A DNA stretch of 64,000 nucleotides from Punctularia strigosozonata HHB-11173 SS5 (lineage: Eukaryota > Basidiomycota > Agaricomycetes > Corticiales > Punctulariaceae). The stretch is taken from NCBI RefSeq assembly GCF_000264995.1, contig NW_006767435.1, positions 1,946,531-2,010,530 on the forward strand. The letters run 5' to 3'. Every line of letters starts with the position of its first letter. Position 1 is the first letter of the stretch. The notes beneath the pieces were generated by a model. That model did not search any database. It was not told the DNA's origin and saw only the letters and a program-made list of their open reading frames with translations. The translations under genes were made by a program, and so were the position numbers. Below are positions 27,254 through 35,717 of the stretch, in pieces.

Positions 27254-27438
27254 CGCTGAACGCCCGGGCGATTCGGCGCGCTCTCTTACGCCTGTGCACT
27301 GTTGCATGAACACTAAACGAGCGAATATACCCTAATGTGCTTTTAATCAACCAATTCAATCCATGCTTGTGAAAAAAAAAATTGTTGTCTCGTAGCTGCG
27401 GTTGGGAGATACTCTCCGGTTCGGTTGCAAGGAAAATA

Positions 27439-27683
27439 CTGTAGTTTTACGACCTTAGGTTCGTCCCCTGTCCCCTGGCAGCCCGAACTGAACCTAATTT
27501 CCCGTGTTGTCCCCTGTCCCCCGCCAAAATCCAGGGCTGGGACTGATCGTGAGAATAGAATTTCTTACTGTGTGAATATTTTTAACTGACTCTGGTCAGT
27601 TTGCGAACTTCCCACGGCCCCGAACTTGCAGCTGTCCCCTGTCCCCCGGGAGGCGGACCGAACCTAAGGTCGTAAAACTACAG
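27439..27683. mobile_element. MITE copy 1 (245 bp, TA target site)
   Basis: This is a nonautonomous element with perfect 25-bp terminal inverted repeats, beginning CTGTAGTTTTACGACCTTAG and repeated exactly in inverse at the right end. TA dinucleotides flank both ends, consistent with Tc1/mariner/pogo-type insertion. The interior has subterminal runs of the type GTCCCCTGTCCCC near both ends and no coding frame. It lies 88 bp left of the pogo-like transposon. Confidence 0.87.
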
Positions 27684-27771
27684 TACGAACACGATATGAA
27701 ATCATTCAATCGAAGGATTCTCCGTTCAGACATCAGCTCAGAAACATGCTGATGCTGGATAATGACATGTA

Positions 27772-27945
27772 CAGTCAACTCTGTCTTAACCCATCTCTCT
27801 GGGAACCCATACTCTGTAGTAAGCCATACATTCGGGTGTCTCCCAACTTGGGGGAATAGTAAAATCCCATATCTCTCCTGTACTCCATAACCCATGAGCC
27901 TGAGATAGATCATAACCCATAATTCAAGCTGGAAATCGGGTCATT
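27772..27945. repeat. left subterminal AACCCAT repeats of the transposon
   Basis: AACCCAT or near copies (GCCAT, TCCCAT) follow at 27788, 27804, about 27821, 27864, 27889 and 27914. The right end shows TCCCAT, AACCCAT and, within the inverted repeat, AACCCAT again (30600-30655). Repeated short motifs near both ends are commonly transposase-binding sites; that role here is inference. Confidence 0.6.
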
Positions 27946-28106
27946 CCGAAAGGTTGCCGAGGTCCGGATCCATTGGCATCATCGTTGTGATGTCGGGCAG
28001 CCGGTATGATTCCGGGGCAACTTGTCGGCGCTGTGCGCAAGCGAGACAAGAAAAAAAATTGCTCGGACCTCCTTGACCTAAGCCCTGCCACACGTCTTGT
28101 TGCACC

Positions 28107-30520
28107 ATGTCTCCTCTCAATATCGTAAAGAAAGGTTTTGAAAAGCTCAATGCGGAGACGCGGGCCCGTGTTGCTGCGCTCCGTGAAAAGGCCAAACACA
28201 GAGCTCTTTCGGCAGAGGAGGAACGGTTCATTGACAACGATGCAAATCACATAGATGAATTGCGCATCATTGAGCTCCTCGAGAATGCGTCAAACTACTG
28301 TACTTTTACGACCGTAAGTTCGTCCCGCGTCCCCGGGGCACCCGAACCGAACTTATTGTCCCCTGTCCCCCTGGCACTCCGAACCTCCGGGACACATTAT
28401 ATCTGACCGTGAGAGTCTTAAATCTGACCGTGTGATCAAGAAAATCTGACCTCGTAAGCACGTGTCCCCCGGGCAGGCTGCGGATGAACTTCCCACGGCC
28501 GCGAACTTGGGTCGTGTCCCCTGTCCCCCTCCGACCTGGCCGAACTTACGGTCGTAAAAGTACAGTATTCTAACACGGTGTCGAAATTCACGGAGCAGCA
28601 GAAAGCTGTGTTGGACAAATTGATGAAGCTCGGGAAAGGGATCAAGGACACTTTAGTGCCCAAACGGAAGAGTAAGTTCTTGTGATGCATGTGAGGTGAC
28701 ATAAAGGCCTCATCGCAGACACAGGAGCAGAGGAGCGGAAGCCGAAGGATACTGAGAAGAAGCAGTCCAAGGAGCCGGTTTTCACAAAGAAGGAGAATGC
28801 TACAATTGAACAGCGCATCGAAATCCTGGACTGGTATCATAAGAACAAGCATGCCTTCAATCAACGAGAAACAGCCGATATCTTCAACAAGAAATATCCG
28901 AACCTCTGCCTCACACAGCCGACCATCTCAGCGTGGCTTAAGGAGGAACCGAAGTGGCGAGAGCGATATGCAGAAGTTGTAGCAAAGGGTCATGGAGGGC
29001 AGGCGAAGCGGTTGAAGCAGACTGAGCACCCCGAGATCACGGATATGCTCGAGCTCTGGGTTGCGGAGGCCATGAGGAACGGAGTCTTGCTGACAGGAGA
29101 GGTTCTTCGCCAGAAGTGGACACACTTTGCTGATATGGTTGGGATACCAGAAGATGACCGCCTGACTCTCAGTGAGGGATGGCTGACGGCGTTCAAGAAG
29201 CGCTGCGGGCTGAAGGAGTATAAACGTCATGGGGAGGCTGCATCGAGCAACCCTGAGACGATTGAGGAGGAACGTGCTCGTGTCCGCGCGCTCATCGAGG
29301 ATGGTGGATACACCATCAAAGACATCTTCAATATGGATGAGACTGGTCTCTTCTGGAAGTATGTTCTTGTCTATGTGTGTTGCGGCCGGATGGCGCTGAC
29401 TGGCGCTGTACATAGGATGCCACCTGACCGTGGTCTGCAGGACAAGCCCTCTGCCGGTGTTAAAGGGTGCAAGAGCCGGCTTACTTTTGCATTCGCGATG
29501 AACGCCGACGGAAGCGAGAAGTTACAACCTGTCATCATTGGCAAATACCAGAGGCCACGCGCGTTTGAGAAGAAAACTGGGGAGCAGCTGGGGTTCTATT
29601 ATCGCAACAACGCAAAGGCATGGATGACGATGAAGCTGTTCCACGAGTGGGTTGGCGGATGGGATGCGAAGCTTCGCCAGAAAAAGAGGTCCGTTCTCCT
29701 CCTCGTTGACGGATTTAGTGCACATGTTGCACCCGATAACCTCACAAACATCCGTGTCGAGGTTTTCCGGCCAAATCTCACACCACATGTCCAACCTGCC
29801 GATGCCGGAACCATACAATGCTGGAAGGCCCACTACCGCAGCGCCTTCATTGGGCGAGCTATTGATCGCTACGACATGGGAATCTCTCCGGAAGATATAT
29901 ACGACATCAACATCCTTGAAGCCATGCGCATGGCGATATCAGCTTGGAGCAAGGTGGATACGACAACGATCCGCAACTGTTGGCTGAAGACCGGCATCCT
30001 CCCTCCTTCCGTTCTTGCACCATCTTCACTGTCCATTGCTCCTTCGATTCCAATTGCCTCCCTCCTCAACTCAGATCCTGTAGCTGCTGCCGAAAAGGAG
30101 GTCGAAGATACGCTGGAAGAGCTGCAATCCCGTGGGGTCTTACAGCGAGTCAACCGGATGGCCATCGGTGAATTGCTGAATCACACAGGTGAAGACATTG
30201 CGGCGGATGTAGGCACATCGGACGAAGACATCGTGCAATCGGTTCTTGACGTGAAAAGAGGACAAGATCAGATGGAGGCAGATGGAGGTGACGACGCAGA
30301 AGAGGGAGATGATGCTGCGCCGCGACCGACACGCCGAGAGGCGTTGGAGGCGGCGCAGACGTTGCGCAGCTATCTCTCCAGCATGCCGGAGGACTTTGCT
30401 CGCGTATTGGAGAACAATCTACTCACTTTTGGTCGCCATACCCGTCTTGAAGAGGCTCGTAACATGCGCTCGACGTCCATCACCGACTATTTTGTTCCCA
30501 GACAGGCTGCCGCCTTGTAG
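28107..30520 (+). CDS. pogo/Tigger-type DDE transposase (interrupted by a MITE)
   Basis: The transposase has an N-terminal basic coiled region (KGFEKLNAETRARVAALREK), a psq/CENP-B-like helix-turn-helix (IEQRIEILDWYHKNKHAF to TQPTISAWLKEEPKW), a second HTH-Tnp region (LRQKWTHFADMVG to LTAFKKRCGLKEYKRHGEA) and the DDE endonuclease. Catalytic Asp residues lie in FNMDETGLFW, LLLVDGFSAH and QPADAGTIQ, with 30 residues between the last two (DD30D). Introns are 28672-28718 and 29359-29415. The MITE 28298-28565 with its extra TA interrupts the first exon. Without it the exons total 2040 nt (679 residues) with no stop. An Asp/Glu-rich tail precedes the C-terminus. As it stands, the MITE brings in stops and separates the N-terminus. 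Confidence 0.93.
28298..28565. mobile_element. MITE copy 2 (268 bp) inserted in the transposase gene
   Basis: This belongs to the same family as 27439-27683. Perfect 25-bp inverted repeats begin CTGTACTTTTACGACCGTAA, flanked by TA at 28296-28297 and 28566-28567. The interior again has GTCCCCTGTCCCCC-type runs near both ends, with AATCTGACC repeats in the middle. The insertion splits the transposase codon series, and removal of the element plus one TA restores frame exactly (NYSNTVSKFTEQQ). Confidence 0.9.
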
Positions 30521-30675
30521 AATACATACATTGTCCTTGCACTGTATGTATACGATGATATTTGAGCCGCAAATCGAGTTTTTCGCCACCTCTCTCGCAT
30601 CCCATACTCTTCGATAACCCATAATTTTGACCCTCTCCCGAAAGTATGGGTTAAGAGAGAGTTGACTGTAATTGG

Positions 30676-33255: not shown

Positions 33256-33481
33256 AATTAAACCATACAACGCTATCTACTGAACTCCGATATTCCTACG
33301 GGGTGTGTGCATACGTGATGTATCTGAGATCCTTATTTTTAGAGCTGGCATCATGGTATATATAAAGGTATGATACACGGGATTGACATCTATGTTGGTT
33401 GAGAGAGATTTGGACGGCTTCAAATACGTCGCGGTGCAAACATAATGTGCACTTCACGAAGTAATCCGTTCCCCAACGCGT

Positions 33482-34978
33482 TCACGCCATGTCGCTACCG
33501 TTAGAGAGTAATCGGATATTCTGCGCTTCGCTTCGTCGTGCTAGCTGATTCAACTCCGCTTTGATCGAAGCCGTATCCCACACTCGTTGCGTGTCGCCGA
33601 TTGCAGCCATTATACACGCAATGATGCCAGATACCAAAGGTGCCGCTGATGTTTGGAAAGTTTCGGGCAGTGAGCATAGCAAGTATCGGAGTTAGGATAT
33701 ATGCTTACAGAATGAAGTACCCTGTGTTCCACCGAGTTGGAACGTCCGTCTCTCGGGATCATCAGGGTGTGCGATAGAAGGCAAGTCTTCTCCAGGAGCG
33801 TAAATATCGATTTCTATCCGATTGATTGATTAATTATTGAGGCTATGTTTTACAGATGTTTGGAAAGTGTGATACGCACCGGGCCCGTAGTTTGAGAAAC
33901 TTGAGATGCGATCTTGATGATCAGTAGAGCCGACAGTAATGACTTCCGCCATCCTCGCGCTTACTATCCGAAAAGCGATTGAAAAGCGATTGATATTTGT
34001 CGCCGCTGCTGGAAATGACCATGTCAGTACCCCGAACCCCCCCCCCCCACCCCACACACACACCTCCGAGAGCACAGCGCTGACAGTCGTTGCAGGAGGA
34101 AGTTCGCAAATATGTCCCTTCCAGTATCCACGGGTCGATACCACCAACACGGTGACCCCAAGAGCAATTCACGATGCTGGGATAACGAGAATCAAGGGTC
34201 TCGTGGTGTTGGGCGATCCTGGATACGGCATTGATCATGTCAGACGCAAGGATATCGGCGCCATGTCGCGTGAACTTGCAGAGGATGAGTTTGCAGTTCT
34301 TCGCTGCACCAAGGGACTGTCCAGCGATGAACGTTGCCGCCAATGTGCCATGAGTGTGTTCGTCATTGTCAAATTCCATCGGCAGAGCATTGGGATCCCG
34401 GATCGCGTCGAAGTAGGTCAAATCACGTCCGTCAAACTCCTACAGAGCAAATCCCGATGTAGCATCAGCAAGTGTGTTCAATGCAGGAATAGTGAGGGTG
34501 TCCGTACGACTTACTCCGTCTATGTTGTTAAGACCTGTGTCAATGACGTACACGGGGACATCCTGACCGTATTCAGGCTGACAGACGTATTTCCAAGGAC
34601 CCTGCGGGGATACAACGCTCCCTTTGTGAGATGCGCGCCAGAGGCCCCAATTTCCGGTGTCCGTGATCTTCATCCCGTACCACTGCAGCGGAGTGTCTTC
34701 TTGATAACCCCGAACCTGAGACGAAGCTTAGTATGCTTACAACGAAAGGGTGTTTCAAACCGACGTACGATCTTATCGTCCTGAATCAGAGCCATCACCT
34801 CATCTGTGAAGCTGCCGGCGTAACCGTGCACTAGGTAGCGGAAGACATAGGTAACACCTTTCGCGGCGGAGGGTTTGCCGGACGCATGGGCTTTGCGGAT
34901 GGCAGTCAGATGCTCGTCTTGCTTAGTTGCAGAAATGCCATCCTTGAAAAGGACCATCACATTGTTGAATTTTGACAT
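33482..34978 (-). CDS. subtilisin-like serine protease (S8) with an internal inverted segment
   Basis: This is a proteinase-K-type protease with an I9-like propeptide (MSKFNNVMVLFKDGISATKQ ... GYAGSFTDEVMALIQDDKI). Catalytic Asp is in VPVYVIDTGLNNIDG, His in DEHTHGTLAATFIAGQ and Ser in QGTSFSAPLVSG, the last split by an intron (about 33711-33655). No signal peptide is evident, so it may be intracellular. Between SIVNCSWGHRVGG and MAEVITVGSTDHQDR the coding strand makes no sense. The expected part, with the oxyanion-hole Asn (RLIFVAAAGNDH), instead reads on the plus strand at 33953-34137. In the present orientation the enzyme lacks that region, so the locus is either inactive, in one state of an inversion, or misassembled. 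All other splice borders are normal. It ends with a conserved-looking ELNQLARRSEAQNIRLLSNG. Confidence 0.88.
33953..34137 (+). other. 185-bp inverted exon-intron-exon segment inside the protease gene
   Basis: Read on the plus strand, this segment encodes LALTIRKAIEKRLIFVAAAG plus NDH, then an intron 34023-34095 (GTCAGT...TTGCAG, with CGCTGAC branch-like sequence), then EEVRKYVPSSIHGS. These are the strand-helix and AGN oxyanion motif that S8 proteases carry between NCSWG and EVITVG. The dinucleotide AT occurs at each border (33951-33952 and 34138-34139), which is self-complementary, so the breakpoints are ambiguous by 2 bp. Flipping the segment gives continuous frame at both joints. Confidence 0.85.
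34038..34071 (+). repeat. homopolymer C run and CA microsatellite
   Basis: A run of 12 C beginning at 34038 is followed by CCCACACACACACACC. It lies in the intron of the inverted protease segment. Such a run is prone to slippage and could cause sequencing or assembly trouble here. Confidence 0.8.
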
Positions 34979-35717
34979 CGTGCCAGAGTGCGGGGTGGAT
35001 TGGTGCTGCTGACAGGACCGAAGAGTTGCTTGGCTGATCAGACACAGTGATGTGCTGGATTTATATCTTATGAGCTGAGGACAGGAAGCATTACCAGCCT
35101 ACGCCTAGGCCTGCGTTAGTCGAGGCACCGGAAGAAATGGCTGCGTGCAGGCAACAGCATCGGTCCTGGTCTTGACAGCGGACGGAGATTGTTCAGGCAC
35201 GCTCCGTTCCTTCAGATCGCGAGAACCTTGCGTGCGCCGAGTGCGCCGTTGGTGTGCTATCAGCGACGGTGTTATCCGGATGCAGGCGGCGCCGCATAAG
35301 TAAGTACGAAGTCCAGCCTGAAACTGCCTGCCAGAGGATTCGTTCTCTCGTCAACATCCTAACATCAGGCACCGCAATGCATTTACCGACACCTCAGTCT
35401 AAATGCTAGCCTGAATCCGTTCGGCGTTTCGAGCTCCCCGATGTGGTGTGCCTGAACGACGCACGCAGTCCCTCAATGTGATCCCGAACCGCGTAAAATG
35501 AAGAGTCATCACGATCTACGTCGGTGCGACAGAGTGACGGAAACTTGGAGGCGATAAGTAATTCGTATCCGTCGCGCAGCTCACGCAGTTCGTTGATGAA
35601 CTTACATAGAAGTGGGACGAAACGTGGACGCGACGGGGCCTGAGAAATCTCCCGCGGAGGTTTCCGATTACGGGGCTTGTGATCGACGTCACTGCGGACT
35701 ATGTCCTTCTCTTGTCC
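34979..35717. other. 740-bp divergent intergenic stretch
   Basis: This lies between the divergent protease and ADCK-like genes. A minus-strand frame (about 35720-35406, with KFINELRELRDGYELLIASK and a Ser/Thr-rich end) is open but has no ATG and no clear upstream exon; it might be an exon of an unrecognised gene. No RNA gene or repeat was seen. Confidence 0.3.

What the first reader, a model, noticed from the sequence alone, without database searches (positions are those of the whole stretch)
33953..34137. Clean 185-bp microinversion inside a subtilisin-like protease gene
The minus-strand protease gene is normal on both sides, but the part that should carry the oxyanion-hole Asn (VAAAGNDH) is read only on the plus strand. 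The inverted block holds the end of one exon, a whole intron with correct GTCAGT and TTGCAG borders for the plus strand, and the start of the next exon (EEVRKYVPSSI). If flipped, both joints continue in frame: GHRVGG-ILALTIRK on one side and SIHGS-MAEVITVG on the other, with no base lost. AT occurs at both borders. Frame recovery at both ends plus a correctly oriented intron makes chance very unlikely. It may be a recent inversion that inactivates the gene, a heterozygous or switchable inversion, or an assembly flip near the C-run. No longer inverted repeats flank it, which argues against classical site-specific inversion.
Basis: partly seen in the sequence, partly recalled or inferred. Interest (0 to 1): 0.88.

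Follow-up and report, generated by a model that had tools for sequence, protein, structure and literature searches.

The report
Flipped DNA block breaks protease gene
A stretch of about 185 letters inside a fungal-type protein-cutting enzyme gene lies back to front in this assembly, which breaks the gene; it is most likely a small, recent natural inversion or a sequencing-assembly error, not a new kind of system.

Summary
A minus-strand S8A (proteinase K-type) subtilase gene has open exons, GT-AG splice sites and the Asp, His and Ser motifs, but the part with the oxyanion-hole Asn reads only on the plus strand, at 33953-34137. Searched apart, the pieces are colinear in an S8 profile: upstream 5-112, block 122-155, downstream 155-240; Pfam gives the same order. 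The block holds a whole 73-nt GT-AG intron in plus orientation.

Two details are new. The borders are a 3-bp inverted repeat (ATC/GAT); 5.3% of 200000 random inversions have 3 bp or more. The block is nearly centred on the window's only G-quadruplex-like motif, which contains its only C/G homopolymer of 9 or more.

Best reading: a real, recent, clean microinversion, made by microhomology-guided break repair at the fragile intron, that inactivates this allele. An assembly flip at the hard-to-sequence C-run remains a serious rival: no reads, fungal orthologue or whole genome could be reached, and the central C-run fits both. Nothing supports a programmed switch. A new example of a known mutation class; modest interest.

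The parts
34769..34978 (-). S8 protease gene, exon 1 (I9 propeptide)
   Evidence: open frame, donor GTACGT; Pfam Inhibitor_I9 E 8.9e-6, residues 9-80 of the upstream part
34515..34715 (-). exon 2, catalytic Asp motif (VIDTG)
   Evidence: motif meaning recalled
34140..34439 (-). exon 3, catalytic His motif (HTHGT), ends WGHRVGG at the block border
   Evidence: PF00082 profile 1-119 for the upstream part
33953..34137 (+). inverted block (183-189 bp, ends ambiguous by the 3-bp repeat)
   Evidence: S8 profile 122-155, on + only
33951..33953 (.). left arm of 3-bp border inverted repeat (ATC)
34137..34139 (.). right arm of 3-bp border inverted repeat (GAT)
33953..34022 (+). exon piece in block with oxyanion-hole Asn motif (VAAAGNDH)
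   Evidence: motif meaning recalled
34023..34095 (+). 73-nt intron in block, GTCAGT...TTGCAG, in + orientation
34030..34053 (.). C4-GAA-C12-A-C4: the only G4-like motif (G-rich strand is -) found in the window
   Evidence: four tracts of 3 or more, loops 1-7
34053..34062 (.). the only (CA)5 run found in the window, next to the C12 tract
34096..34137 (+). second exon piece in block (EEVRKYVPSSIHGS)
33880..33952 (-). downstream exon beginning MAEVITVGSTDHQDRISSFSNYGP
33709..33813 (-). exon, ends inside the catalytic Ser motif (GTSF|S)
33482..33645 (-). last exon (SAPLVSG...), to the stop codon
33921..33923 (-). stop reached when exon 3 is read straight through the block (137 + 172 = 309 residues)

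Best explanation
In the sequenced haplotype a 183-189 bp segment of an S8A subtilase gene is inverted without visible loss or gain of bases (shown as an arrangement of the assembled sequence, relative to homology). Inferred mechanism: a break or stalled fork at the G4-prone C12/(CA)5 intron tract in the middle of the segment was repaired by microhomology-guided fold-back copying between the 3-bp inverted repeats ATC/GAT at its edges, or by re-ligation of the freed segment, which left it reversed. Inferred consequence: read straight on, the message keeps the propeptide, Asp and His, then runs into antisense sequence and a stop after 309 residues, without the oxyanion Asn or the catalytic Ser; even a splice round the block could not supply the Asn segment. 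The allele should make no normally active protease. The other exons show no damage, so the event is recent, segregating, or heterozygous between two nuclei.
For: Colinear S8 parts with the block fitting the gap only on +. Whole codons at both borders and a correctly oriented GT-AG intron of 73 nt, within the 53-75 nt range of this gene's others. 3-bp border inverted repeat, reached by 5.3% of random inversions; in PMC8755829 all 59 definite human-chimpanzee microinversions have inverted repeats of 3 nt or more at or near the borders, 45 of 59 are exact reverse complements, and break repair within the inverting segment is the proposed origin. The only G4-like motif of 64 kb is almost centred in the block. 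No stop in the 388 codons of the three parts, and all four flanking introns keep GT-AG. Exact base-to-base joints and no N in the window are hard to get from a misplaced contig (general knowledge, not tested).
Against: No reads, fungal orthologue, sister strain or whole genome could be reached, so reality in the cell is untested. A 3-bp repeat is weak (about 1 in 19 by chance) and the G4/centre link was noticed after the fact. The published definite microinversions are 17-33 nt, not 185, and their authors find two-break re-ligation unlikely at that size. The G-rich tract is also a place where sequencing and assembly fail. The + strand around the block shows no unusual fold that would bring the borders together (z 0.19). 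Absence of decay fits an artefact equally well.
Confidence: 0.55

Rival explanations
1. Assembly or gap-filling artefact: reads failed at the C12/(CA)5 tract, a roughly 185-bp filler centred on it was placed in reverse orientation, and the real gene is intact.
For: The tract holds the window's only C or G homopolymer of 9 or more, centred 2.5 nt from the block's centre (arithmetic by hand), as a failure gap would be. The rest of the gene is undamaged.
Against: Both joints are exact, with no N, overlap or lost base seen. An assembler orientation error normally needs a long inverted repeat (general knowledge), and only 3 bp exist. A 3-bp border repeat is expected in only 5.3% of arbitrary flips.
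Confidence: 0.33
2. Heterozygous inversion in a dikaryon or diploid (a sub-case of the best explanation): one nucleus carries the inverted allele, the other the usual arrangement, and the assembly shows one of them.
For: Gene otherwise undamaged, as expected if an inactive allele is sheltered. Gene style suggests a fungus, perhaps a basidiomycete (inference; not tested).
Against: No allele data; it cannot be separated from a fixed inversion here.
Confidence: 0.2
3. Programmed or site-specific reversible switch that turns the protease on and off.
For: Clean flip in a gene; nothing more.
Against: No inverted repeats of recombinase-site length at the borders: 3 bp only, and 3 of 30 matches in the next flanks. 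No site-specific recombinase among the 9 open frames scanned, out of 66 of 150 aa or more.
Confidence: 0.02
4. Chance antisense resemblance: the plus-strand block is not a piece of the protease.
For: The block alone is weak against Pfam (E 0.11) and unmatched in the PDB; codon usage favours + by only 3.04 against 2.83 bits for one antisense frame.
Against: Position-specific fit, 0 of 5000 codon shuffles reaching the score, only one of six frames fits, frame and intron coincidences.
Confidence: 0.01

Closest known systems
[quoted passage not shown]
   Same: Pure inversion with no base lost; short inverted repeat at the borders (their shortest class is 3 nt, 8 of 59); the proposed break-repair origin lies inside the inverting segment.
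   Different: Here 183-189 bp rather than 17-33 nt; coding and gene-breaking; no comparison genome; G4-like tract in the centre.
S8A subtilases, proteinase K / aqualysin group (Pfam PF00082 with I9 propeptide PF05922)
   Same: I9 propeptide, Asp, His and Ser motifs in order; best PDB matches 1s2n and keratinase 5wsl for the upstream part, aqualysin-1 (4dzt) and 2b6n for the downstream part.
   Different: Oxyanion-Asn segment reversed in this assembly, so the gene as assembled cannot encode the full domain.
Site-specific DNA inversion switches (bacterial phase variation; recalled)
   Same: A defined segment in reverse orientation within or beside a gene.
   Different: No inverted recombination sites and no recombinase seen in what was scanned; eukaryotic gene.

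Membership tests
Microinversion (pure, short) | Segment equals the reverse complement of the expected sequence, flanks unchanged | tested here: met
   S8 parts 5-112 / 122-155 on + / 155-240; whole codons at both borders. The expectation comes from homology, not from a sister genome.
Microinversion (pure, short) | Inverted repeat of at least 3 nt at the borders (PMC8755829) | tested here: met
   ATC/GAT, 3 bp; 5.3% by chance
Microinversion (pure, short) | Size of the published definite set (17-33 nt, PMC8755829) | tested here: not met
   183-189 bp; size is not part of the general definition of an inversion, but this case lies outside that set
Microinversion (pure, short) | Ancestral orientation seen in related genomes | not testable with these tools
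   No fungal orthologue reached: viral contigs none, genome contigs 5 bacterial loci (downstream part as query), plasmids none by blastn
Microinversion (pure, short) | Present in raw reads | not testable with these tools
   No reads or own genome held
S8A subtilase | Catalytic Asp, His and Ser motifs in order on the coding strand | tested here: met
   VIDTG, HTHGT, GTSFSAP on the minus strand; PF00082 above cut-off for both flanking parts
S8A subtilase | Oxyanion-hole Asn segment on the coding strand | tested here: not met
   Only on the plus strand
Site-specific inversion switch | Inverted recombination sites at both borders | tested here: not met
   3 bp only; next 30 nt match at 3 of 30 positions
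Site-specific inversion switch | Dedicated recombinase nearby | tested here: inconclusive
   9 of 66 open frames of 150 aa or more scanned; none is a site-specific recombinase; a Tc5/pogo-type DDE transposase lies at 28700-30520

The most novel reading that the evidence does not exclude
The G4/C12 intron makes this segment a recurrent inversion hot spot: the allele flips repeatedly by break repair, so both orientations coexist in the population or between nuclei, giving a crude recombinase-free on/off polymorphism of a protease.
Probability: 0.04. Interest if true: 0.65.

Novelty: new member of a known kind. Interest (0 to 1): 0.3.

Why it matters
If real, it is an unusually readable example of a clean coding microinversion longer than the published definite set, with its likely trigger (a G4-like, C12/(CA)5 intron) at the centre and 3-bp microhomology at the edges. 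It would let the break-within-the-segment model be tested at a single locus. If an artefact, it warns that G-rich intron tracts can create false pseudogenes. Either way, gene annotation is likely to go wrong here (inference).

Tried and rejected
Whole-genome search: none held. Relatives: with the downstream part as query, viral contigs gave 14 pattern matches and no relative, genome contigs 75 pattern matches and 5 bacterial subtilase loci; 33400-35100 against plasmids by blastn, no match. A codon-usage scan for further flipped blocks gave 76 raw candidate positions but not the known block itself, so it has no power and is not used; whether the window has other flips is therefore open. In that call three of the 13 training stretches held one stop each. 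Block exons score 3.04 bits over 38 codons on +, but one antisense frame scores 2.83, so codon usage does not settle the strand. Hairpin between the borders: + strand 33930-34160 folds no better than shuffles (z 0.19); only this strand and orientation was folded. Splicing round the block on the minus strand: six in-frame routes with loose consensus sites exist, all starting inside the antisense stretch; they could rejoin the downstream frame and so keep the Ser part, but none can supply the Asn segment. Recombinase-type repeats: none at the borders. Papers: searches on inversions (two returned nothing) listed no title or abstract start that reports an intragenic microinversion in a fungus; several listed fungal papers mention small inversions in their text and were not opened, so this is no proof of absence. 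Two searches on basidiomycete subtilases returned nothing. PMC8755829 was seen as abstract, passages and Discussion part 1; PMC7954356 as the start of its abstract and two passages of its reference list; all others as search listing only.

Full report
What is there. The window is eukaryotic in gene style (short GT-AG introns in this gene; ABC1 kinase, P450, bleomycin-hydrolase-like and ribosomal S5-type open frames) and no whole genome is held for it. It is probably fungal, perhaps basidiomycete; this is an inference, and the species was not identified. On the minus strand, from 34978 down to 33482, lies a subtilase gene. Its upstream exons encode 237 residues with an I9 propeptide (Pfam E 8.9e-6) and the first part of the S8 domain (PF00082, profile 1-119, E 9.7e-7). 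Its downstream exons encode 113 residues matching profile 172-274 (E 2.9e-16). The Asp, His and Ser motifs (meanings recalled) are all present on the minus strand. PDB matches are to proteinase K-type enzymes: 1s2n E 6.2e-7 for the upstream part, aqualysin-1 4dzt E 4.4e-9 for the downstream part. The raw open frame of exon 3 running into the block had no PDB match.

The block. Between the two parts, 33953-34137 carries the missing oxyanion-Asn segment on the plus strand only. Counted from the border AT it comprises 24 codons, a 73-nt GTCAGT...TTGCAG intron and 14 codons. Searched alone with an S8 profile built from 17 bacterial subtilases (17 of 35 loci passed the motif rule), it matches positions 122-155 with 16.6 bits; the upstream part matches 5-112 and the downstream part 155-240. 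In a scan of 1942 window open frames of 20 or more residues with that profile, the five best-scoring all lie in this gene, the plus-strand frame 33921-34781 being fourth with 11.7 bits (11.1 for its best stretch); the best frame elsewhere has 3.9. Of 5000 codon-shuffled blocks, 3579 received a reported score, the best 5.3, and none reached 16.6; of the block's six frames only one, on the plus strand, scores above zero (13.7 bits unspliced). Against this: Pfam alone gives the block only E 0.11, below its cut-off, phmmer against the PDB gives nothing for it, and codon usage does not tell its strand. Position, frame, intron and profile score together make the observation secure.

Borders. The border repeat is one base longer: ATC at 33951-33953 and GAT at 34137-34139. 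The inversion could therefore be 183, 185, 187 or 189 bp with the same result. Of 200000 random inversions of 100-500 bp in this window, 5.3% have a border repeat of 3 bp or more. Beyond it the flanks agree at only 3 of 30 positions, and no longer inverted repeat sits at the borders.

The centre. The block contains the only G4-like motif found in the 64-kb window on either strand (34030-34053), the only C or G homopolymer of 9 or more (C12, 34037-34048; an A10 lies at 27372), and the only (CA)5 run (34053-34062). By hand from those coordinates, the motif's centre is 3.5 nt and the C12's 2.5 nt from the block's centre. This was noticed after the fact. It is the expected picture if a break or stalled fork at the tract started the event, and also the expected picture if sequencing failed at the tract and a filler was placed backwards.

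Consequence. Read straight on, exon 3 runs through the block into a stop at 33921-33923: 137 residues from exons 1-2 plus 172, 309 in all, of which 237 are native. Asn and Ser are then lost. Six in-frame splice routes with loose consensus sites exist that could rejoin the downstream frame and keep Ser, but none can supply the Asn segment. The allele as assembled should lack normal activity (inference). No stop is seen in the 388 codons of the three parts and the flanking introns keep GT-AG, so the event is recent, sheltered, or not real.

Mechanism and known kinds. PMC8755829 (abstract, passages, Discussion part 1) describes 59 microinversions of 17-33 nt, all with inverted repeats of 3 nt or more at or near the borders, 45 of them exact reverse complements, and proposes break repair within the inverting segment by microhomology-mediated break-induced replication. 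The present case shares purity and the 3-nt border class but is several times longer. Re-ligation of a freed segment, which those authors find unlikely at about 20 nt, is easier to imagine at 185 bp (inference). I rate a real microinversion (fixed or heterozygous) at about 0.6-0.65, of which 0.55 for the stated mechanism and consequence, and an assembly flip at about 0.33. The exact joints and the border repeat favour the former; the central C-run and the absence of reads keep the latter alive. A site-specific switch is contradicted by the lack of sites.

Verdict. A sound observation, and a new member of a known kind (clean microinversion, here gene-breaking), of modest interest unless reads prove it polymorphic. 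No parallel in a fungus was seen in the listings of the searches made, but listed fungal papers that mention small inversions were not opened.

Noticed in passing
27770-30670: An apparently complete Tc5/pogo-type DNA transposon: 606-residue stop-to-stop open frame with DDE_1 and HTH_Tnp_Tc5 domains, flanked by 25-nt terminal inverted repeats 96% complementary that begin and end at TA. It looks young (inference); nothing links it to the inversion.
   Followed up: partly
27643-28584: Imperfect 43-47 nt inverted repeats (83-84% complementary) sharing one arm region (28279-28338), beside and inside the left end of the transposon; perhaps an older nested element.
   Followed up: no
33482-34978: The subtilase seems to start directly with its I9 propeptide (MSKFNNVMVLFKDG); by eye no secretion signal, so it may be intracellular. 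Not tested.
   Followed up: no
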